Assembly: GCF_004795255.1 (NCBI RefSeq)
Contig: NZ_SSBQ01000002.1
Location: 4,432,001-4,496,000 of the forward strand
Reading direction: 5' to 3'
Length of the DNA: 64,000 nt
DNA from: Streptomyces sp. RKND-216
GTDB taxonomy: Bacteria > Actinomycetota > Actinomycetes > Streptomycetales > Streptomycetaceae
Part shown: positions 1,100 to 26,096 of the stretch, piece by piece
How the letters are laid out: every line of letters begins with the position of its first letter
How positions within the stretch are numbered: the stretch's first letter is position 1
The notes under the pieces: model-generated
Database searches by the model: none
What the model was told of the DNA's origin: nothing
The model's input: only the letters and a program-made list of their open reading frames with translations
Program-made: the position numbers and the translations under genes

Positions 1100-3079
1100 T
1101 CAGGTGCCCGGTGCGGCCCCCACGGCGGTGAGCAGGGCGAGCGGCGTCGCGGCCGCCCATGCCTGCGGGGAGCAGGAGTGCGGGTAGGAGACGGGCTCCG
1201 GATGGTCGTCGCGGCCGTGGCCGGCCAGGACCTCCGGGAGTCGCCAGCCGGTGCGTTCGGCTGCCGCGAGGACGCCCTCGGCGAGGCGGCGGCCCTCCTC
1301 GTGCAGGCCGTGGCGTGCCAGGCCGAGCGCGATGACCGCGTTGTCGTGCGGCCAGACGCTGCCCCGGTGGTACGTCAGCGGGTGGTACGCGGGCTGGCCT
1401 GCGGCGAGCGTGCGGACGCCCCAGCCGCTGAAGAAGTCCGGTTCCAGCAGGCGCCGTCCGACAGCTCGTGCGTCACGGCCGCCGAGGATGCCGGACCACA
1501 ACAGGTGCCCGGCGTCCGAGGCGAGCGCCGTGACCCGGCGCCCGGAGCCGTCCAGGGCGAGGGCGGGGAAGTCCTCGGCGTCCATCCAGAAGTCGCGCCG
1601 GAAGCGGGACTTCAGGTCGTCGGCCGCCTCCTCCAGCCGGTCGGCCCACGCCGCGTCGTCCCACACCTTGCGGGCCAGGCGGGCGGTACGGCGCAGCGCG
1701 TCGTAGGCGTAGCCCTGCACCTCGCTGACGGCGAGGGCGCCCTGCGCCGGGGTGCCGTCGGCGTCGCAGATCGAGCCGGGGGAGTCCTTCCAGCTCTGGT
1801 TGGCCAGCCCGCCCGCGTCGGCCTCGTAGACGAGGTAGCCGCGCTCGTCCAGTCCGCCGTGCCGGAACATCCAGTCCACGGCGGCTCGTGCGTGCTTCTC
1901 CAGGCGCCGGGCCGTCGTCGTGTCGCCGGTGTGGTCGGTGTACGCCCCGAGCAGTACCAGGAACAGCGGCGTGGCGTCGACCGTGCCGTAGTAGCGGCCG
2001 AACGGGACCTGGCCGAAGTGGGCGAGCTCGCCGTGCCGGATCTCGTGCACGATCTTGCCGGGTTGGGCGACCCGGGAGGGGTCGGCTCCGCCGGCCTGGG
2101 TGGCGGCGAGCGCGGGCAGCGTCGCGGCGGCCAGGTCTGGCCTGTAGGGCAGCGCGTACAGGGAGGTGAGCAGCGAGTCGCGGCCGAAAAGGGTGAGGAA
2201 CCACGGCACGCCCGCGGCGGGCGGAAGCAGCGGCTCGTCGTCCGGTCCGGCGGCGGGCACGCGGAGCCCGGCCAGGTCGGCGAGGCCCTGCTCGCAGGCG
2301 CGCAGCAGTTCCGGCCACCGGGTGAGCTGTGCCGGCGCGGGGTCGGCACAGACGTAGGCGTCCACCTCGGCACAGACGCGGTCGCGCGCGGCGGCGGGCG
2401 AGGGAGCCGGCTCGCCCGAGCCGAGGCCGGTGTGTGGACGGGCGATCACTCTGAGGTCAATGCGGGCGCTGCCGTGCGGCGGGAGGGTGACGGTCCACTC
2501 CAGCCGGTGCGCGGCGCCGCCGTCCGCCGGACGCCCGTCCGCCGCGTCCACCGGGGTGACGGACTCGGGCGGGGGCTGGGCGGTGACCGTCGTTCCGGCT
2601 CGCCAGTCCTCGCGCCGGTAGCCGAACGCGACGCCGTCCGCCAGGAGTCGGGCGCTGCGCTCGGCGCCGGGCGTGCCGAAGGTGTGGTCGCCGCGCAGGG
2701 CGAACACGTCGGCGAAGTCGGCCGCCGCCGTGAGCCCCACGCGGACGGTGACCTCGTGGCCGACGTTGGCCGTCAGCCGCAGCCGTTCGACGAGGGCGCC
2801 CGAGTCCACGGCCTGCTCGCGGTGCACGGTGCAGGCCGGGGGCCGGTCGCGGCGGAACGGCGGGCACAGCACGGCCGTTCCCCCGCTGCCGTCGGCCCTC
2901 AGCGGCACCAGCACGTCCGGGGCCGAGCCGTCCAGGCTGAGCCGCCACCGGCTGAGGTGGCGGCCGTCCTGCAGGAACAGCCCGTCGGGGGACACGCCGC
3001 TGCGGCCGGTGACGTCGCCGGCGGCGTCCAGCACGGCGAACGTGCCGTCGTGGACGAGGAGTCGGGAGTCGGGGATCAC
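1100..3079 (-). CDS. Glycogen-debranching-like/amylo-alpha-1,6-glucosidase family protein
   Basis: 659 residues from a GTG start at 3079 that overlaps the preceding stop (GTGA); a longer open frame upstream runs out of frame through the neighbouring hydrolase and is spurious. Residues about 5-210 form the beta-rich N-terminal domain of bacterial debranching-enzyme-like proteins (PDGLFLQDGRHLSRW near residue 31). Residues about 255-655 form the (alpha/alpha)6 barrel with FGRDS (298-302) and a YHRGSVWPHDN segment near residue 555. There is no signal peptide, so it acts in the cytosol. It probably cleaves alpha-glycosidic bonds of an imported sugar. It is the last gene of a four-gene operon with a second barrel hydrolase, an isomerase and a dehydrogenase. 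Confidence 0.85.
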   Translation of the reverse strand: MIPDSRLLVHDGTFAVLDAAGDVTGRSGVSPDGLFLQDGRHLSRWRLSLDGSAPDVLVPLRADGSGGTAVLCPPFRRDRPPACTVHREQAVDSGALVERLRLTANVGHEVTVRVGLTAAADFADVFALRGDHTFGTPGAERSARLLADGVAFGYRREDWRAGTTVTAQPPPESVTPVDAADGRPADGGAAHRLEWTVTLPPHGSARIDLRVIARPHTGLGSGEPAPSPAAARDRVCAEVDAYVCADPAPAQLTRWPELLRACEQGLADLAGLRVPAAGPDDEPLLPPAAGVPWFLTLFGRDSLLTSLYALPYRPDLAAATLPALAATQAGGADPSRVAQPGKIVHEIRHGELAHFGQVPFGRYYGTVDATPLFLVLLGAYTDHTGDTTTARRLEKHARAAVDWMFRHGGLDERGYLVYEADAGGLANQSWKDSPGSICDADGTPAQGALAVSEVQGYAYDALRRTARLARKVWDDAAWADRLEEAADDLKSRFRRDFWMDAEDFPALALDGSGRRVTALASDAGHLLWSGILGGRDARAVGRRLLEPDFFSGWGVRTLAAGQPAYHPLTYHRGSVWPHDNAVIALGLARHGLHEEGRRLAEGVLAAAERTGWRLPEVLAGHGRDDHPEPVSYPHSCSPQAWAAATPLALLTAVGAAPGT

Positions 3080-4473
3080 GCGGTGTCCTCCTCGGGAGTC
3101 GGTGCGGCGGGTGGGCGCGCGGCGGCGAGCAGGTCGAGCGCCAGCGCGGCCGTCCAGCTGAAGTCGCGGGTGCCGCGCGCCTCCCCGCTGTACGGGTCGA
3201 CGTACTCGGCGAACCCGGAGCTGCCCGCGGCGTCCAGGGCGGCGTCTCGCAGAGCGTCGGCCCGGTCGGTGTACCCGTGCTGCCGCAGGCCGCGTTCCAG
3301 CAGCCAGTTGACGTTGAACCAGGCGGGGCCGCGCCAGTATCGGCCGGGGTCGAAGGCGTGACCGGCGAGGTCGTAGCTGGGAGCCATGCGCACGGTGTCG
3401 CCGAGGCCGAAGTGCGGCCCGGCGGCCGTACGCACCAGCGCCCGCACCACGTCTGCGGGGAGGCCGGGCACGAGCAGCGGGACCAGCCCGCCGATACCGA
3501 TTTCGGGCACGAGCGCGTCGGCCCGCAGGTCGCGGCACCGGAACACACCCGTCTCCGCGTCCCACAGCCGGGTCACCAGCGCGTCGGTCAGGGCCTCCGC
3601 GCGCCGGAGGTGTGGCCCCGGGGCTGCGCCGACCTCGGTCGCGATCCGGGCGAGAGCGTGCTCGGAGGCGGCGAACAGCGCGTTCGTGCCCGGGTCTTCC
3701 ACGGCGAAGGCGTGCGCCTCGCCGGGGCCGCCGTCGCGGTAGCCGCGGTCGCGGTAGTCGGCGGCGAGCCGCACGTACCGGCCGTAGTCGAGGTCGGTGG
3801 GCCGGTCGGAGGCCGCGCCGTGGTCGAGGTCGGCGCGGCGGAACGTGCTCGCCGGGACCGGCTCGACGCGCTGCAACGGCCCGTCCCAGCACGGGCTGTT
3901 GTCCATGCCGGGCTCCCACGGGTGCAGCACGGCGGCCAGTCCGCCGCCGCCCAGGTCGCGGCGGTCGGCCAGGTAGTGGTGCCAGGCGGCCAGACGCGGG
4001 TAGAGCCTGGGGAGGAAGCCGCGACGGTGCGATGCGGCCGGGTCGGCCTCGTGCACCAGCCAGGCCGCGAGGGCGTGTACCGGCGGCTGCACGATGCCGG
4101 AGGTCTCCACCTCCTGCGGAGCCCCGGCCGCCGCCCCGGCGGTGGAGGAACGCCAGAAGTCGGGGCTGGGGAAGTACGCGCCGAGCGGCACGGCCCGGTT
4201 GAAGACGATGTGCGGTACCCGCCCGTCGCCCCACTGGGCGGTCGTCAGCGTCTCCAGCTCATGTTGCGCCCGGCGTACGGACAGGTGCCGCAGGCCGATG
4301 GCGACGAACGCGGAGTCCCAGCTCCACTGGTGCGGGTACAGGCCGTGGGAGGGCACGGTGGAGCTGCCGGTCCAGTTGTGCAGCAGCACCCGGCGGGCGG
4401 CGCGGCGCAGCGCCGTGTGCCCCTGTGGGGTGTGGGCGGGGCCGTGCAGGCGGGTGAGGACGGGCGCGGTCAT
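3076..4473 (-). CDS. GH63/MGH1-like (alpha/alpha)6-barrel glycoside hydrolase
   Basis: 465 residues from ATG 4473, which overlaps the isomerase stop (ATGA). Motifs match the GH63/mannosylglycerate-hydrolase-like clan: HQWSWDSAFVAIGLRHL (48-64), HPWEPGMDNSPCWD (184-197) and WRGPAWFNVNWLLERGL near residue 396. In this clan an Asp in the WD segment and a later acidic residue are catalytic. No signal peptide is present, so the substrate must be imported, presumably by the divergent ABC transporter. The pairing with another barrel hydrolase by a 4-base overlap suggests sequential trimming of one substrate. Glucosylglycerate, mannosylglycerate or another small glycoside are possible; the sequence does not decide. 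Confidence 0.8.
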   Translation of the reverse strand: MTAPVLTRLHGPAHTPQGHTALRRAARRVLLHNWTGSSTVPSHGLYPHQWSWDSAFVAIGLRHLSVRRAQHELETLTTAQWGDGRVPHIVFNRAVPLGAYFPSPDFWRSSTAGAAAGAPQEVETSGIVQPPVHALAAWLVHEADPAASHRRGFLPRLYPRLAAWHHYLADRRDLGGGGLAAVLHPWEPGMDNSPCWDGPLQRVEPVPASTFRRADLDHGAASDRPTDLDYGRYVRLAADYRDRGYRDGGPGEAHAFAVEDPGTNALFAASEHALARIATEVGAAPGPHLRRAEALTDALVTRLWDAETGVFRCRDLRADALVPEIGIGGLVPLLVPGLPADVVRALVRTAAGPHFGLGDTVRMAPSYDLAGHAFDPGRYWRGPAWFNVNWLLERGLRQHGYTDRADALRDAALDAAGSSGFAEYVDPYSGEARGTRDFSWTAALALDLLAAARPPAAPTPEEDTA

Positions 4474-19955: not shown

Positions 19956-20209
19956 CGTGCGCCGTTCCCTCACACCTGGGGGACCCTTTCGGCCAACTGT
20001 CCGGTCTGCAGCGCTCGCTATGACGCCGAGCAATCATTGCCTCCCGGCAATCAGTGCAGGTTGGAGGACATCCGCCGGCGGGGCTTGTTCTCGCACGTTT
20101 GAGCCTGGAGCACCGCATATTCAGCGCTCAGTGTGCAGAGATGTGGAATGTTGTGCGAGTCAGGCGGTCAGGGGAGGCCGTCGACTGACACTTCCTTGGG
20201 GGGAAGCGC

Positions 20210-20830
20210 ATGCGTACACGTGCTGAAAGCACGTCTGTTCGGCATGCCCGCGTCGCGAGCGTGCGGGGGTTCGCCGATGGTGTTCCCGCGGTCCGGCGTC
20301 GGCGAAGGCTGCTGCCGTGGGGCAGGGCGGTGTCCGCGGTCGCCGCGGGCGCGGTGCTGTCCCTGATGGGCAGCGGCGTCGCGGTGGCGGGATCGGGCCC
20401 GGAGCCCGAGCGGGATCCGGCGTCGGGGTCGGCAGCGACCGAGGCGGGAAACCCGGCGAGTGTCCGGGCGCAGGCGGCGGGGGTGTGTGCGGACGCCTAC
20501 CAGATCGGCACGACGTCCTATGCCTACCGCCAGGGCGAGGAGATCGCTTCGGTGAAGCAGTTCTACTCGCCGGAGTGCAACGAGAACTACGGCTATGTGT
20601 GGGTGTGGAAGTCCTTCCTCGACAAGGACATCACCTTCGACCTGACGGTGGGCGTGTGGTCCTACGAACGGGAGTACGTGGTCGGGGCACAGACCACGTT
20701 CGACACGCACGAGCAGGAGTTCTGGAGCGGTGGCGCCGACACGGTCGAGGAGTGCACCTCAGGCGACGGCGTGTTGACCGTGCCCGGTGAGCAGGGTGGT
20801 TACCCGGCGCGCACCTCGAAGCGCTGCTGA
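20210..20830 (+). CDS. Secreted protein of unknown function upstream of the RHS gene
   Basis: 206 residues. An Arg-rich N-terminus precedes a hydrophobic signal (about 38-60) with a likely cleavage after VAVA60. The exported part has four Cys and the segment SVKQFYSPECNENYGYVWVW. This recalls the Cys-containing small secreted proteins of the DUF2690 type, which have a YSP-x-C core, though the match is loose. GGGGGGAAG precedes the ATG. It is 187 bases from the RHS gene in the same direction with a hairpin between, so it is a neighbour but probably a separate transcript. Confidence 0.65.
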   Translation: MRTRAESTSVRHARVASVRGFADGVPAVRRRRRLLPWGRAVSAVAAGAVLSLMGSGVAVAGSGPEPERDPASGSAATEAGNPASVRAQAAGVCADAYQIGTTSYAYRQGEEIASVKQFYSPECNENYGYVWVWKSFLDKDITFDLTVGVWSYEREYVVGAQTTFDTHEQEFWSGGADTVEECTSGDGVLTVPGEQGGYPARTSKRC

Positions 20831-20847
20831 GAGCCGCTTCCGGTCAG

Positions 20848-20881
20848 GAACACGCCGGCTCCCCGACGGAGCGGTGTGTTC
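20848..20881 (+). terminator. Hairpin after the secreted-protein gene
   Basis: GAACAC (20848-20853) pairs with GTGTTC (20876-20881), and an inner GCTCC pairs with GGAGC around a short loop, 18 bases after the stop. Probably a terminator. Confidence 0.5.
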
Positions 20882-21017
20882 TGTTCCGGTCTCCCTTGCG
20901 CCGGGCCCTCAGGTCTCTGAGCGAGAAGGCAAGGGGCGCGGGTGGTGCCGCTGGCACGGCACCACCCGCCATGGAACGTCCCGGTCCATCCGATTGCGAC
21001 AGTTGGGGGAGTCCCAC

Positions 21018-24000
21018 ATGCATGTTGGCATGCCCGCTATACGGCGCCGTAGACGCCGGGTCCGCATGGCGGCGGTGTCCGTCGCCGCTGCGACGGCCAC
21101 GGTCGTCGCGCTGGTGCCCGCCACGGCGGCAGACCAGACCGCGTCACCGGCCAGGTCGGTGTTCACCGCCGACCCGCCGCCGGTGCCGCAAGGAGTGACC
21201 AAGGCGCCGGCCAGTACGCCGATAGGTGTGCCCGGCAGTAAGCGGCCGACGGTCACCGCAGGCATCCTGCAGTCCTCCTTCCAGGGCATCGGCACGGGGA
21301 AGGTGCCCTGGTCGGACTTCCATCAGGCGCAGTTGACCGACGCGGTCGCCGCGCAGGTGAACGTGGGCAACGGCAACCTGCTGCTCACGCTGACCGCTTT
21401 CGACGTCGCCGACCCCGGACCGGGTGGGGGGCTGAAGTTCGGGCACGCCTACAACGGCCTGAACACCTCCTGGAAGTCCTCCACGGGCGCGGACTATCTG
21501 GTGCGGGAGCCGAACTCCGGCGCCGTATACGTCCAGGGCCCCAGCGGCACGATCGCCGTCTTCGAGCGGGACGGCGACGACCTCACCCCGGCTCCGGGGT
21601 ACCGGCAGGACCTGGAGGAGTCCTCGGACGGCAAGACCTTCACCCTCACCGACCGCGGCAGCGGCCGCGAGACGACCTTCACCCGTCCGGACGACGACAT
21701 CAGCACCGCGGCGCGGGTCTCGAGGATCGAGGACAACAACGGCAACGCCACCACCTTCGCCTACGACGGTGACCTGACCCGCACCATGACCGGCGTCTCG
21801 GGGCGGAAGCTGACCTTCACCCATCAGGACGGACGCCTGGTGAAGGTGGCCGACCACACCGGACGGGAGGCCACCTACGACTGGGACGGGCCGGACCTGG
21901 CCTCGTTCACCGACACCGCCGGTGCCACCACCCGTTTCGACTACGACGCCTCCCACCGGCTCACGAAGGTGACCACTCCGGAGGGTCGGCAAACGACCTT
22001 CACCTGGGACACCAACCGTGTCGGCTCGATCACGCGCGTCACCGACGAAGCCGAAGGCACCGGTCCTACGACCGCCTTCCGCTGGGTCCTGCCGCAGCCC
22101 GGCTCGCCCGGCGAGGGCGTGGTACGCATCACCGACCCACGTGGTGAACACACCCTCAAGACGGTCGACTCCCGCTGGCGCACCCGCAAGACCGAAAACC
22201 CCCTCGGCCACGAACGCAGCGCCGAATGGAACGCCGACAACAGCGTGGTGACCGCCACCGACGCCATGGGAGTGGGCGGCGACCCCGGCAACGCCACCAC
22301 CTTCGGCTGGAACAACCGCGGCGCGATGACCTCCGCCGAACTGCCCACCGGCGCCACCACCTCACTCAGCGCCTACCAGACCATCTCGGGCGCCGACCTG
22401 CCGGGCACGATCACCACCCCGGACGGGGAAGAGACCGACTACGACTACGACACGAAGGGCAACACCCTCTCCGTCGCGGTCACCGGCGACGACGGCGGCA
22501 GCCGGGAGTTCACCTACCAGGACTCCGACACCGACTGCGGCGGTTTCGACGGTCAGCGTTGTACGGCAGAGCAGCCGCACAAGGACGGCGAGTCTGCTCC
22601 CACGACGCACTTCACCTACAACGGCGACGGTGACCTGACCACGGTCGATCCCCCGGAGCCGAAGGGCGACACGACCTACACCTACGACGCTCTGGGCCGG
22701 ACGAAGACCGTCACCGACGGCCGCGGGCAGACCCTCACCTACACCTACGACGACCGCGACCGCGTCACCCGCGTGGAGCCCGAGACCGGCGCCGCGATCG
22801 TCTACACCTGGGACGACGACGGGAATCGCACCTCCCGCACCGACACCACGGGCACCACCGGATACACCTACGACGACCTGAGCCGTGAGACGGTGCGCAC
22901 CCTCCAGGACGGCTCGCAGACCGTGCTGGCCTACACCCCGAACGGCAACCTCGACTACTACCGCGACGCCGGCGGCGAGACCGACTACACCTACGACGCC
23001 GCGAATCGTCTGACCGACCTGACCGCGCCGGACGGCAAGACCACCACCTTCGACCACAACAGCAACGGCGAGCGCACCAAGACCACCTATCCCGGTGGCA
23101 CCGTTCAGGAGATCGATCTGGACGATTCGGGACGTCCGCAGCGGATCACCGCCACCTCCGACGCCGGCACCCTGGTCGATCTGTCCTACGACTACTCCCG
23201 CACCGAGGGCGGTGAGACGGTCGACGGGACGAAGATCCGAGCGAAGACCGACCATGTCACGGGTCTGGACTACACCTACAGCTACAACTCGGCGGGCCGA
23301 TTGTCCTATGCGGAGGAGCAGGACGGTTCGGAGAAGGTGGCGGGCTGGCAGTACTGCTACGACCCGGCGGGGAACGTCACTTCCCAGGGCGTGACCGAGG
23401 GGTGTCCTCGCGGTACCGAGTACACCTACAACGACGCCTCCCAGCTCACCGCGAAGAACGGGGAGGGCTCGGGCTGGTCCTACGACGAGGCCGGCAACGA
23501 GACTGCCGGTGCGCCGACGACGGCCGACACCCGTACCGGTGAGAAGTACTCCGCCTACAACCAGCTCACCGAGATCACCCACGACGGCGCCACCTACACC
23601 GCGGAGTACGCGGGCACCAGCAACGCCGAACGTGTGCGTTTCGGTGACACGACGTTCCGCAACACGCCGCTGGGTCTGTCCGCTCAGACGACGAGTGGCG
23701 TCACCACCGGGTTCGTTCGCGAGCCGGCGGGCACACTCAACTCCATGACGCGGGGCGGGGAGAGCTACTACTACCTGACCGACGCTCTCGGTTCCGTCGT
23801 CGCTCTGACCGACGAGTCCGGTAACAAGGTCAACTCCTACGACTACAAGCCCCGCGGCTCCTTGCGCGCCGGCAGCAGCGAAGAGGTGCCGCAGCCTTAC
23901 CACTTCACCGGCACTTACCACGACCCCACTCACCTCTACAAGATGGGAGTCCGCTACTACGACAGCCGCACCGGCCGCTTCACCCAACCCGACCCCAGCG

Positions 24001-24326
24001 GCCAAGAGGTAAACCCCTACCTCTACGCCAACGGCGACCCTGTCAACAACATCGATCCCACGGGGAAACTCTTCGGTGCCGTCGCCCTCGGTATTACCGT
24101 CGCGACGATCGGGTACGCCTACTACACTAACGGCCAAAACGGGGCAGAGGCGGCAACCGCTGCCGCCATCGCGGACGCGGGAGTAGTCGCCCTTTGCGAG
24201 GTGGGAGCCGCAGCAACCACGGGACCAGGAGCGGTGGCTGCCCTGCCAGCATGCATGACTATCGGAGCTGCTGCAGGAATGGCGGTGAGCAACATGTACA
24301 AGCAGAAACAGAGCTACGGCTACTGA
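21018..24326 (+). CDS. Secreted RHS/YD-repeat protein
   Basis: 1102 residues from ATG 21018, preceded by GGGGGAG; an open frame further upstream lacks a ribosome-binding site. A signal peptide (residues 1 to about 38, Arg-rich then ATVVALVPATA) shows export. Residues about 330-1000 are tandem YD repeats (YTYD, FDYDA, YDWDG) that form the hollow RHS shell. The RHS-core end is YYLTDALGSVVALTD to RYYDSRTGRFTQPDP and DPTG at about 1013. The last 88 residues are a distinct hydrophobic, Ala/Gly-rich tail with two Cys. RHS tails usually carry a toxin, but none is recognisable here. The tail changes in the second partial copy downstream. Confidence 0.9.
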   Translation: MHVGMPAIRRRRRRVRMAAVSVAAATATVVALVPATAADQTASPARSVFTADPPPVPQGVTKAPASTPIGVPGSKRPTVTAGILQSSFQGIGTGKVPWSDFHQAQLTDAVAAQVNVGNGNLLLTLTAFDVADPGPGGGLKFGHAYNGLNTSWKSSTGADYLVREPNSGAVYVQGPSGTIAVFERDGDDLTPAPGYRQDLEESSDGKTFTLTDRGSGRETTFTRPDDDISTAARVSRIEDNNGNATTFAYDGDLTRTMTGVSGRKLTFTHQDGRLVKVADHTGREATYDWDGPDLASFTDTAGATTRFDYDASHRLTKVTTPEGRQTTFTWDTNRVGSITRVTDEAEGTGPTTAFRWVLPQPGSPGEGVVRITDPRGEHTLKTVDSRWRTRKTENPLGHERSAEWNADNSVVTATDAMGVGGDPGNATTFGWNNRGAMTSAELPTGATTSLSAYQTISGADLPGTITTPDGEETDYDYDTKGNTLSVAVTGDDGGSREFTYQDSDTDCGGFDGQRCTAEQPHKDGESAPTTHFTYNGDGDLTTVDPPEPKGDTTYTYDALGRTKTVTDGRGQTLTYTYDDRDRVTRVEPETGAAIVYTWDDDGNRTSRTDTTGTTGYTYDDLSRETVRTLQDGSQTVLAYTPNGNLDYYRDAGGETDYTYDAANRLTDLTAPDGKTTTFDHNSNGERTKTTYPGGTVQEIDLDDSGRPQRITATSDAGTLVDLSYDYSRTEGGETVDGTKIRAKTDHVTGLDYTYSYNSAGRLSYAEEQDGSEKVAGWQYCYDPAGNVTSQGVTEGCPRGTEYTYNDASQLTAKNGEGSGWSYDEAGNETAGAPTTADTRTGEKYSAYNQLTEITHDGATYTAEYAGTSNAERVRFGDTTFRNTPLGLSAQTTSGVTTGFVREPAGTLNSMTRGGESYYYLTDALGSVVALTDESGNKVNSYDYKPRGSLRAGSSEEVPQPYHFTGTYHDPTHLYKMGVRYYDSRTGRFTQPDPSGQEVNPYLYANGDPVNNIDPTGKLFGAVALGITVATIGYAYYTNGQNGAEAATAAAIADAGVVALCEVGAAATTGPGAVAALPACMTIGAAAGMAVSNMYKQKQSYGY
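23303..24004 (+). repeat. RHS-core duplication, copy 1 (inside the RHS gene)
   Basis: These 702 bases recur at 24812-25513, offset 1509 bases, with no gaps and 9 substitutions. The copy covers the end of the YD-repeat region and the RHS core up to the start of the variable tail. Confidence 0.95.
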
Positions 24327-24335
24327 TATCGAGAT

Positions 24336-24366
24336 GATGGGGGGCGAATTCAATTCGCCCCCCATC
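24336..24366 (+). terminator. Near-perfect palindrome just after the RHS stop
   Basis: 15-bp perfect arms (24336-24350 and 24352-24366) around one central base, 9 bases after the RHS stop. In RNA this folds to a G/C-rich stem topped by an AATT-rich end, suitable as a terminator or transcript stabiliser. Confidence 0.7.
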
Positions 24367-24406
24367 CGGCACCGTCCGCGCTGATTTTGAGATCAATAGG
24401 AGAATT

Positions 24407-24601
24407 ATGCCCACGCCTAGAAATCCAAGGCAGGTCGCCTACCTCGGAGCCATCACGGCAACGTGCGGAATCTTGTTGCTTTTGGTGCCCACTATGTTCG
24501 GACGACCGGGAATTGAATGGGTCCCCACGGGAGCGCTCGGATTTATCCTACTCATCGCGGGACTCGGCAGTATGGCGGTAGTGAAGCTCAAGCGACGATA
24601 A
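24407..24601 (+). CDS. Small membrane protein downstream of the RHS tail
   Basis: 64 residues with two hydrophobic segments (about 10-28 and 40-57) and a basic tail (KLKRR). TAGGAGA lies 4 bases before the ATG. Codon use includes TTG, TTT, CGA and GAA, more A+T-rich than the neighbours, which suggests transferred DNA. Its position directly after an RHS variable tail is where immunity genes are found, and a membrane location would suit protection from a hydrophobic, membrane-active tail. No homologue recognised. Confidence 0.6.
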   Translation: MPTPRNPRQVAYLGAITATCGILLLLVPTMFGRPGIEWVPTGALGFILLIAGLGSMAVVKLKRR

Positions 24602-24630
24602 CCTTGAGGAGAAAGGGTAGACTCAAGTAA

Positions 24631-24759
24631 ATGCATCTAACTGAGACGCTCAGCGGCAAGTACACGCCTATACCGGATGGACAGAGCGCGATACTCTTCA
24701 CGGTGGTATTCATCGTCTCTACTTGCGTAATTATCTACCTGTTCAACCGCAAAAAGTAG
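24631..24759 (+). CDS. Tiny single-pass membrane protein
   Basis: 42 codons after ATG 24631, with one hydrophobic segment (ILFTVVFIVSTCVIIYLF) followed by NRKK. Codon use is A+T-rich like the preceding small gene, from which it is separated by 29 bases. GAGGAGA lies rather far upstream (24606-24612), so translation may depend on coupling. It could be a second immunity protein, part of a membrane complex with the 64-residue protein, or chance; the charged ends and hydrophobic core argue against chance. Confidence 0.45.
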   Translation: MHLTETLSGKYTPIPDGQSAILFTVVFIVSTCVIIYLFNRKK

Positions 24760-24811
24760 ACATTTTTCTGTATCTTGCACATGGGCTATCCCGAACAAGA
24801 CGTACGCACCC

Positions 24812-25513
24812 GTCCTATGGGGAGGAGCGGGACGGTTCGGAGAAGGTGGCGGGCTGGCAGTACTGCTGCGACCCGGCGGGGAACGTCACTTCCCAGGGCG
24901 TGACCGAGGGGTGTCCTCGCGGTACCGAGTACACCTACAACGACGCCTCCCAGCTCACCGCGAAGAACGGGGAGGGCTCGGGCTGGTCCTGCGACGAGGC
25001 CGGCAACGAGACTGCCGGTGCGCCGACGACGGCTGACACCCGTACCGGTGAGAAGTACTCCGCCTACAACCAGCTCACCGAGATCACCCACGACGGCGCC
25101 ACCTACACCGCGGAGTACGCGGGCACCAGCAACGCCGAACGTGTGCGTTTCGGTGACACGACGTTCCGCAATACTCCGCTGGGTCTGTCCGCTCAGACGA
25201 CGGGTGGCGTCACCACCGGGTTCGTTCGCGAGCCGGCGGGCACACTCAACTCCATGACGCGGGGCGGGGAGAGCTACTACTACCTGACCGACGCTCTCGG
25301 TTCCGTCGTCGCTCTGACCGACGAGTCCGGTAACAAGGTCAACTCCTACGACTACAAGCCCCGCGGCTCCTTGCGCGCCGGCAGCAGCGAAGAGGTGCCG
25401 CAGCCTTACCACTTCACCGGCACTTACCACGACCCCACTCACCTCTACAAGATGGGAGCCCGCTACTACGACAGCCGCACCGGCCGCTTCACCCAACCCG
25501 ACCCCAGCGGCCA
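24812..25513 (+). repeat. RHS-core duplication, copy 2 (orphan)
   Basis: Second copy of the 702-base segment at 23303-24004, with 9 substitutions and no indels. The 1509-base offset is a multiple of three, so recombination between the copies would keep the reading frame and replace the first tail with the second. Confidence 0.95.
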
Positions 25514-25757
25514 GGAAACCAACCCCTACCTCTACGCCCAAGGCGACTTCATCAACCGGATCGATCCGAGCGGCCTGTTCAGCTTCGCCGATTCGGTGGG
25601 CATCGTGACGGGCACCTTGGCTGGAGCCGCTGGAATTGCCCTTGTGGCCAGTTCCTGCGCACTTACTGCGGGCATCACCTGCGTCGCGGGCGCGATGGTG
25701 ACCGGAGCGCTGTGGGGAGCCGGTGGCGGCGCGTTGGGCTCGACCCTCGCCCCGGGC
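24812..25757 (+). pseudogene. Orphan RHS core and alternative C-terminal tail without a start
   Basis: The frame enters at GEERDGSEKV, inside what would be the YD-repeat region, with no promoter, ribosome-binding site or sensible start. It then repeats the RHS core of the upstream gene almost exactly (two Tyr to Cys changes, one Val to Ala). After PDPSGQE it changes to a different tail: DPSGLFSFADSVGIVTGTLA, hydrophobic, Ala/Gly-rich and with two Cys. The tail breaks off near GSTLAPGG at a 45-bp palindrome, after which the frame is antisense to an antitoxin gene. It is best read as a silent tail cassette that could recombine into the full RHS gene, now truncated. Confidence 0.75.
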
Positions 25758-26070
25758 GGCGGCCCTGGGTCTGGTCCAGGCCCTGGACCAGACCCAGGGC
25801 CGCTTCGACCTCGCGGCGTTCCTGCTCGGTCAGTGCTGCGGTCGGCTTCGGAGCGGAGTCGGGGGATAGCCCGTCCGCTGCCCGCTCAGCCTGGGCGATG
25901 AGGGCGTCGACCTGAGCGAACTGTGCCTCTATGGCGTCGCTCTCCGCCATCTGGCGTGTTGCGGCATGCAGAACATAGGCCGAGACATCCATGCCAGCTC
26001 GTTCCGCGTGCTGCTTGATGCGTTCGGCCTGGTCGTTCTCCAGACTGATGGTGATGCGCGTCTTCGCCAT
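25675..26070 (-). CDS. Orphan ribbon-helix-helix/CopG-like antitoxin
   Basis: ATG 26070 begins MAKTRITISLENDQAERIK, an N-terminal beta strand and helix typical of ribbon-helix-helix antitoxins, followed by an acidic helical stretch (ATRQMAESDAIEAQFAQVD). An 18-bp palindrome lies 9-26 bases upstream, as expected for autoregulation. No toxin gene follows. After EAALGLVQGL the frame crosses the 45-bp palindrome and continues antisense to the orphan RHS tail. The last 30 or so residues (RRPGRGSSPTRR onward) are therefore probably a run-on created by a rearrangement that removed the toxin. Confidence 0.65.
   Translation of the reverse strand: MAKTRITISLENDQAERIKQHAERAGMDVSAYVLHAATRQMAESDAIEAQFAQVDALIAQAERAADGLSPDSAPKPTAALTEQERREVEAALGLVQGLDQTQGRRPGRGSSPTRRHRLPTALRSPSRPRRR
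25759..25803. repeat. 45-bp perfect palindrome at the orphan-tail/antitoxin junction
   Basis: 22-bp perfect arms (25759-25780 and 25782-25803) around a single central C. The right arm is antitoxin coding sequence on the minus strand and the left arm is its inverted copy. An exact inverted duplication with no spacer is unusual. It may be the scar of a fold-back repair event, or serve as a bidirectional terminator. Confidence 0.9.
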
Positions 26071-26078
26071 GAAAGAAT

Positions 26079-26096
26079 CGTCATACGCGTATGACG
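26079..26096. promoter_or_regulatory. Antitoxin operator (18-bp perfect palindrome)
   Basis: CGTCATACGCGTATGACG is perfectly self-complementary and lies 9-26 bases upstream of the antitoxin ATG, within the expected core promoter. Such sites are bound by ribbon-helix-helix antitoxin dimers. Confidence 0.65.

What the first reader, a model, noticed from the sequence alone, without database searches (positions are those of the whole stretch)
20210..26096. RHS locus with a silent second tail cassette: a possible switchable surface or toxin system
A secreted RHS protein ends in a short hydrophobic two-Cys tail and is followed by two tiny membrane proteins. A startless copy of the RHS core (702 bp, 9 differences) then leads into a different hydrophobic two-Cys tail. 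The 1509-bp offset is a multiple of three, so recombination would swap tails in frame and delete the small genes with the first tail. This is the logic of RHS main gene plus orphan cassette known from Gram-negative bacteria, here with membrane-type tails instead of a recognisable enzyme toxin.
Basis: partly seen in the sequence, partly recalled or inferred. Interest (0 to 1): 0.8.

Follow-up and report, generated by a model that had tools for sequence, protein, structure and literature searches.

The report
Streptomyces RHS toxin with tail relic
A soil bacterium carries a secreted cage-like protein that probably delivers a small membrane-damaging tail, with two tiny membrane proteins likely protecting the producer, and the 'second tail' beside it is a broken leftover of another tail rather than a working spare.

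Summary
In detail: a 702-bp RHS-core repeat (9 differences, offset 1509) leads into a second hydrophobic two-Cys tail. The genome is inferred to be Streptomyces. 80 related loci show that the main gene belongs to a large, Streptomyces-centred RHS family. Cores are conserved; tails of about 60-110 aa are swapped: of 86 pairs with cores at least 88% identical, 65 have unrelated tails. Of 73 usable tails, 54 have two Cys, 16 have four, 3 have none, none an odd number. In 68 of 73 loci a tiny transmembrane ORF follows (random positions: 6.6%), and similar tails tend to have similar ORFs (68 of 149 pairs; unrelated tails 24 of 1851). Likeliest reading: a membrane-acting polymorphic toxin with membrane immunity proteins; a variant of a known kind.

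The second copy is not a usable cassette. It lacks a plausible start, has lost about 30 residues of its tail where it runs into an antisense RHH gene at 25749, has two Tyr-to-Cys changes at near-invariant core positions, and lacks the 2-TM gene that follows its two close complete relatives. It looks like a displaced, decaying tip. Nothing was tested functionally, and no structure was predicted.

The parts
21018..24326 (+). Main RHS gene (1102 aa): signal peptide (by eye), RHS repeats, conserved core ending GRFTQPDPSGQEVNPYLYANGDPVNNIDPTG, then tail 1
   Evidence: Pfam RHS_repeat E 1.6e-29; PDB profile match to Rhs proteins including Tse5, E 2.3e-34; database listing of 1102 aa
23303..24004 (+). 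Core segment repeated downstream (copy 1)
24066..24323 (+). Tail 1: 86 aa, 42% Gly+Ala, two Cys; predicted membrane-acting toxin tip
   Evidence: homologues L045, L091, L056, L119 keep both Cys; no Pfam or NCBIfam match to this tail
24407..24601 (+). 64-aa two-TM protein, predicted immunity protein of tail 1
   Evidence: a 59-73 aa two-TM ORF with a CGxxL-type motif follows the tail in L045, L091, L119, L056; 62-aa database protein 74% identical
24631..24759 (+). 42-aa single-TM protein, N-out by charge, predicted second immunity or accessory protein
   Evidence: related 37-46 aa ORFs in the same order in L119, L091 (with a shorter start than the one listed) and, more divergent, L045; none seen after L056
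24812..25513 (+). Startless copy of the core (copy 2), 9 differences, 6 non-synonymous, Y19C and Y60C
25575..25748 (+). Tail 2 relic: first about 58 of about 88 residues of a tail of the L039/L116 type, 3' part missing
   Evidence: right edge from homology break with L146 at 25749
25675..26085 (-). RHH (NikA/CopG-like) gene whose native end (GRRPGHAA stop in G145) is lost; it now reads on into antisense tail 2
   Evidence: (Pfam NikA-like 1.6e-6)
20210..20830 (+). 206-aa ORF (secreted, by eye) upstream; a homologue also precedes an RHS gene in G059 contig 34, no significant hit in the 80 loci
20084..25748 (.). Segment without DNA-level match in the relative G145, which has RHS tail remnants, two transposases and a group II intron reverse transcriptase at the same place

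Best explanation
The locus is a polymorphic toxin locus of a Streptomyces RHS family that has undergone C-terminal displacement. Shown: conserved core, swapped tails, small membrane genes associated with tail type, conserved DPxG junction, and a truncated second copy with no plausible start and no 2-TM gene after it. Inferred: a Sec-exported RHS shell holds the tail, cuts itself at IDPTG as other Rhs proteins do, and releases a disulfide-bonded hydrophobic tip that inserts into and depolarises the plasma membrane of neighbouring hyphae or Gram-positive competitors. In a monoderm the target membrane is reachable from outside, so no injection machine is needed. The 2-TM and the N-out 1-TM microproteins protect the producer in the membrane. 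A recent single crossover (inferred) brought in core fragment + tail 1 + both small genes and pushed the resident tail 2 downstream, where it has since lost its end and its immunity gene in a deletion reaching the RHH gene. It is a relic, not a switch.
For: Cys counts in 73 usable tails: 2 in 54, 4 in 16, 0 in 3, odd in none. TM micro-ORF with ribosome-binding-like word within 750 bp: 68 of 73 versus 102 of 1553 random positions; within 400 bp, up to 80 aa: 62 of 73 versus 36 of 1553, and 3 of 319 after other long ORFs. Pairs with strongly similar tails share a similar small ORF in 68 of 149, intermediate tails in 14 of 278, unrelated tails in 24 of 1851, with the same trend inside each of four core-identity bins. 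13 of 13 small-ORF pairs of 55-99% identity have dN/dS below 1 (0.12-0.55; the identity filter favours low values). 65 of 86 pairs with cores at least 88% identical have unrelated tails, 10 strongly similar ones. The final Asp-Pro is kept in 72 of 73 (partly built in, since the motif was used to place the tail start); in PDB 8h8a the chain ends at this IDPTG, while 8h8b, with IAPTG, continues. 38 of 42 single-TM microproteins are more positive on the C-terminal side. GC is 58-59% in 24000-24999 versus 66-70% in 21000-23999. Orphan decay.
Against: No toxicity or immunity test exists here. Tails match no known toxin family; the best PDB hit is a non-significant pyocin S5 (E 0.15). 81 of 149 strongly similar tail pairs do not share a detectable small ORF, and 24 pairs with unrelated tails do, some strongly (L056/L059, L035/L066, L041/L066). 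Some tails are not very hydrophobic (L043, L046, L099), so not all need be membrane-acting. Five of 73 loci (L046, L049, L062, L105, L111) showed no small membrane ORF; L105 is a distant tail 2 relative, so a 2-TM gene after that tail type is not universal. One conserved-site change is in the main copy, not the orphan (A216V). Autocleavage and the disulfide are inferred from sequence.
Confidence: 0.7

Rival explanations
1. A working silent cassette: recombination between the two core copies switches the cell from tail 1 to tail 2, as shown for orphan Rhs in Salmonella.
For: 702 bp of near identity, in-frame offset; the Salmonella precedent involves 522 bp at 95% identity (PMC3967940, passages).
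Against: Tail 2 cut at about 58 of 88 residues at the junction 25749; tail 2-type 2-TM gene absent at the locus and not found in the genome (no positive control); two near-invariant Tyr lost in the orphan core. In the 10 loci with orphans, 11 of 13 orphan copies lack a plausible start and 5 of 13 are followed by a small TM ORF.
Confidence: 0.06
2. The tails are membrane anchors that hold the RHS protein on the producer's own surface (adhesin or developmental surface protein), and the small proteins are assembly partners.
For: Tails are mostly hydrophobic and C-terminal; small membrane proteins are encoded next door.
Against: An anchor need not be replaced by unrelated sequences between near-identical cores, and cleavage at the conserved Asp would separate tail from shell.
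Confidence: 0.15
3. The tails are toxins, but the small membrane proteins are not immunity proteins; they help export or release the tail, and immunity lies elsewhere.
For: Association of tail type and small ORF is partial (68 of 149); single-TM microproteins share a general plan across tail types.
Against: Small TM ORFs are present after some orphan tails, most of which have no plausible start of their own (L053, L089 and one of three in L075 without, two in L075 with a candidate GTG), which fits immunity better than export.
Confidence: 0.2

Closest known systems
Enterobacterial rhs C-terminal displacement (Jackson 2009, PMC2935791; passages seen)
   Same: Conserved core, non-homologous tips, core-tip fragments downstream of the intact gene, mostly without a start site and partly degenerated; lower-GC tips.
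   Different: Here in Streptomyces, with very short, mostly hydrophobic, even-Cys tips and membrane microproteins.
Salmonella LT2 rhs main/orphan (PMC3967940; passages seen)
   Same: Main gene plus orphan sharing about half a kilobase of near identity.
   Different: Salmonella's orphan has an active toxin and its own immunity gene; this one has lost tail end and immunity gene.
Tse5 pore-forming Rhs of Pseudomonas (PMC10684867; passages seen)
   Same: RHS shell related in sequence (8cp6, E 2.3e-34); autocleavage before a membrane-active C-terminal tip (a similar site is predicted here); cognate immunity gene.
   Different: Tse5 is a type VI effector; its tip is 149 residues (L1169-Q1317) against 86 here; similarity of the tips was not seen in the PDB sequence search, which may not hold the Tse5 tip. 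That Tsi5 is a membrane protein is recalled.
Streptomyces umbrella toxins (PMC11062931; passages seen)
   Same: Secreted polymorphic antibacterial proteins of Streptomyces.
   Different: Umbrella proteins are built on ALF repeats; 'RHS' does not occur in that paper's held text.
Tox-WTIP and two-TM CdiI immunity (Zhang 2012, PMC3482391; passages seen)
   Same: A predicted pore-forming, RHS-linked toxin with two TM helices, and a two-TM immunity protein, are catalogued.
   Different: Tox-WTIP is listed for proteobacteria with RxxR and W-TIP motifs; tail 1 has no Arg or Trp (by eye).

Membership tests
RHS polymorphic toxin | RHS repeats forming an Rhs/teneurin-type shell | tested here: met
   Pfam RHS_repeat 1.6e-29; PDB profile matches to Rhs proteins; by sequence only, fold not predicted
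RHS polymorphic toxin | Conserved DPxG junction followed by a variable tip | tested here: met
   72 of 73 keep the last Asp-Pro (motif partly used to place the tail); 16 tail clusters; swapping
RHS polymorphic toxin | Tip-specific gene immediately downstream | tested here: met
   association partial (68 of 149)
RHS polymorphic toxin | Tip is toxic and neighbour gene neutralises it | not testable with these tools
   needs an experiment
Functional orphan rhs-CT/rhsI cassette | Startless core fragment homologous to the main gene | tested here: met
Functional orphan rhs-CT/rhsI cassette | Complete tip | tested here: not met
   about 58 of 88 residues
Functional orphan rhs-CT/rhsI cassette | Own immunity gene downstream | tested here: not met
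   RHH gene there instead; two close relatives have a 62 or 65 aa 2-TM gene
Tse5-type pore-forming Rhs | Shell and cleavage site homologous | tested here: met
   (sequence only; the cleavage-site alignment shown is to 8h8a/8h8b, not Tse5)
Tse5-type pore-forming Rhs | Tip forms membrane pores | tested here: inconclusive
   hydrophobic, Gly/Ala-rich tails; no significant match to any solved structure
Tse5-type pore-forming Rhs | Type VI delivery part at the N-terminus | tested here: not met
   no delivery domain in Pfam scan; N-terminus reads as a signal peptide by eye
Umbrella toxin | ALF repeats | tested here: not met
   none in Pfam scan

The most novel reading that the evidence does not exclude
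Streptomyces have a genus-wide arsenal of exported RHS proteins, each armed with an interchangeable, disulfide-stapled, membrane-acting tip of about 60-110 residues: in effect bacteriocins packed in an RHS cage. Each tip is held off by one or two membrane microproteins, mostly of 32-80 residues, that fit no curated family. The tips turn over by displacement at stable chromosomal sites, leaving decaying arrays behind. Because a monoderm target's membrane is reachable from outside, no injection machine is required.
Probability: 0.5. Interest if true: 0.75.

Novelty: new variant of a known kind. Interest (0 to 1): 0.55.

Why it matters
If right, it adds a protein weapon family to the best-known antibiotic producers, with dozens of natural tip/microprotein pairs ready to test, and it suggests a function for many micro-ORFs of about 40 and 65 aa. 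It also shows Rhs tip displacement, described in Enterobacteria, running in Streptomyces, with a recent example (98.7% core identity) of a displaced tip breaking down.

Tried and rejected
Switchable cassette: rejected for this locus (truncated tail, no 2-TM gene). Assembly error: thought unlikely, because the right junction is a clean homology break to an RHH gene that is intact in G145 and other relatives, but not excluded without reads. Linker with lost toxin: rejected, tails form conserved families with constrained neighbours. The palindrome at 25759-25803 first looked like a terminator of the second tail; it is also in G145, so it belongs to the RHH gene. A toxin partner beside the RHH gene, expected by recall, was not evident by eye in relatives. 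Family scans of 73 tails and 82 small proteins gave only scattered hits in one or two members each: for tails, SymE in 2 (best E 0.00019), FlgK_2nd in 1 (0.0024), PRK14401 in 1 (0.0037), EntV-type bacteriocin in 1 (0.0059), glycine zipper in 1 (0.0087); for small proteins the most shared is DUF308 in 2 (1.1e-5). None was relied on. A search of the large protein database with tail 1 returned one protein, the window's own. Structure prediction: queue full, one job interrupted, then switched off; no fold was obtained. Rows dropped: 8 of 81 main genes (frameshift, contig end or short tail: L057, L088, L092, L094, L102, L103, L107, L112) before the 73-tail counts; 10 of 61 full-length sequences before alignment A2; 16 of 98 small ORFs before A4. 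Orphans may be undercounted where a contig ends soon after the main gene; one counted orphan (L076) reaches a contig end.
Full report
What is in the window. The window lies in a 5.6-Mb, two-contig genome. That it is Streptomyces is inferred: 78 of the 80 nearest core loci in named genomes are titled Streptomyces, 22 of 37 plasmid records matched are Streptomyces, and the 'same genus' locus L005 has the same tail as the Streptomyces cyaneofuscatus locus L045. The main RHS gene runs 21018-24326 (1102 aa). It ends in an 86-residue tail, and two small membrane ORFs follow (24407-24601, 24631-24759). The core piece 23303-24004 recurs at 24812-25513 with 9 differences at offset 1509.

A family with swapped tails. 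A scan of the species-genome collection with the core alignment found 85 relatives and kept 80 loci: 78 titled Streptomyces, one titled only Actinobacteria, one a Frankiaceae MAG. In a sample of 61 genus genomes, 10 including the window's own hold a match at E 1e-200 or better. In 296 genomes of the phylum two matched the core profile at 1e-60: the window's own and one of the same genus. Of 81 main genes (80 plus the window), 73 had a usable tail: 61-112 residues, 16 similarity clusters. Of 86 pairs with cores at least 88% identical, 65 carry unrelated tails and 10 strongly similar ones; conversely 27 of 983 pairs with cores below 68% carry strongly similar tails. That is tail swapping. Each particular tail is rare: counting the window's own genome, tail 1 was found in 5 and tail 2 in 3 of 392 genus genomes.

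The tails look membrane-active and disulfide-bonded. Median hydropathy is positive and a median 38% of residues are Gly or Ala, though a few tails are polar. The number of Cys is 2 in 54, 4 in 16, 0 in 3 and never odd; by cluster the even rule holds in 16 of 16. Odd counts would be expected in about half if Cys were scattered. In the largest cluster the Cys are 11-23 residues apart. Curated libraries hold no family for them beyond scattered weak hits.

The small genes belong to the tails. A TM micro-ORF with a ribosome-binding-like word lies within 750 bp in 68 of 73 loci, against 102 of 1553 random positions; within 400 bp and up to 80 aa, 62 of 73 against 36 of 1553 and against 3 of 319 ends of other long ORFs. 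Loci with strongly similar tails share a similar small ORF in 68 of 149 pairs, intermediate tails in 14 of 278, unrelated tails in 24 of 1851, and the contrast holds within each core-identity bin. The 13 small-ORF pairs of 55-99% identity all show dN/dS below 1 (the identity filter favours this). Tail 1 relatives L045, L091 and L119 show the window's order tail, 2-TM, 1-TM; L056 shows only the 2-TM gene. The single-TM proteins are mostly N-out by charge: 38 of 42. Against: the match of tail to small ORF is partial, and some unrelated tails share a small ORF.

How it may work. The junction GRFTQPDPSGQExNPYLYAxGDPVNRIDPxG is conserved, with the last Asp-Pro in 72 of 73 (the motif helped to place the tail start, so this count is partly built in). 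It aligns with the end of PDB chain 8h8a, which stops at IDPTG, while 8h8b, bearing IAPTG, continues; I read this as the autocleavage site of Rhs proteins. Tse5, a pore-forming Rhs, is related in the shell and needs cleavage before its tip (PMC10684867, passages). I infer an exported shell that frees a disulfide-stapled tip onto a neighbour's membrane, with the two microproteins as protection. Export, cleavage, disulfide, pore formation and immunity are inferred; family, swapping and association are shown.

The second copy is a relic. The two close tail 2 homologues (L039/L115, L116/L157) are 88 residues and are followed by a 62 or 65 aa 2-TM gene; a distant one, L105, shows no such gene. The window's copy matches for about 58 residues. 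G145, the closest of 199 genus genomes by a neighbouring gene (92% identity), aligns to the window up to 20083 and again from 25749, where its intact RHH gene ends GRRPGHAA stop; the window has lost those last codons and the two genes read into each other. The tail 2-type 2-TM gene was not found in the genome (which by itself cannot prove absence). In the core, 6 of 9 differences change residues; the copy has Cys where 66 of 72 (4 gaps) and 67 of 72 (3 gaps) other sequences have Tyr. The main gene has its own odd residue, Val where 70 of 72 have Ala.

Displacement in Streptomyces. 10 of 81 loci, the window included, have downstream core copies, 13 in all; 11 of 13 lack a plausible start and 5 of 13 are followed by a small TM ORF. 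S. bohaiensis (L075) has three in a row. At the window's site, G145 keeps two tail remnants of other types, one starting at the left homology break, with two transposases and a group II intron reverse transcriptase. This is the pattern of C-terminal displacement (PMC2935791, passages). A single crossover of a circle carrying core fragment, tail 1 and both small genes would give the repeat, its sharp 5' edge just after the 1-TM gene, and the lower-GC stretch; that step is inference.

Literature. Searches for Streptomyces with RHS and toxin terms listed no paper that by title or abstract describes this family; the library holds open-licence papers only, so this is not proof that it is undescribed.

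Noticed in passing
window 20210-20830: 206-aa ORF, secreted by eye, upstream of the RHS gene; a homologue (55-60%) sits directly upstream of an RHS gene in G059 contig 34 too, but gave no significant hit in the 80 loci; matches in 22 of 150 genus genomes.
   Followed up: partly
L075, 7038-15416 (Streptomyces bohaiensis): Array of one RHS core-tail and three downstream core-tail copies, each with small TM ORFs after it; the last has nearly the first one's tail. The first frame is only 666 aa.
   Followed up: partly
L146 reverse complement, 2470-3200: In the relative G145: two RHS tail remnants (E 4e-7 and 5e-8) and a stretch that reads, by eye, like a 2-TM small protein, at the site where the window has its RHS locus.
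   Followed up: yes
window 25759-25803: Near-perfect 45-bp palindrome inside the 3' end of the RHH gene, also present in G145.
   Followed up: partly
L069, 4552-6657: Orphan core-tail reading frame runs on into a transposase (DDE_Tnp_1_6 E 3e-26).
   Followed up: partly
L053, L089: Orphan tails with no plausible start are followed by single-TM micro-ORFs: possible kept orphan immunity.
   Followed up: no
G000:C2:3565826-3567562: A second, distant RHS protein (1526-aa frame) in the same genome.
   Followed up: no
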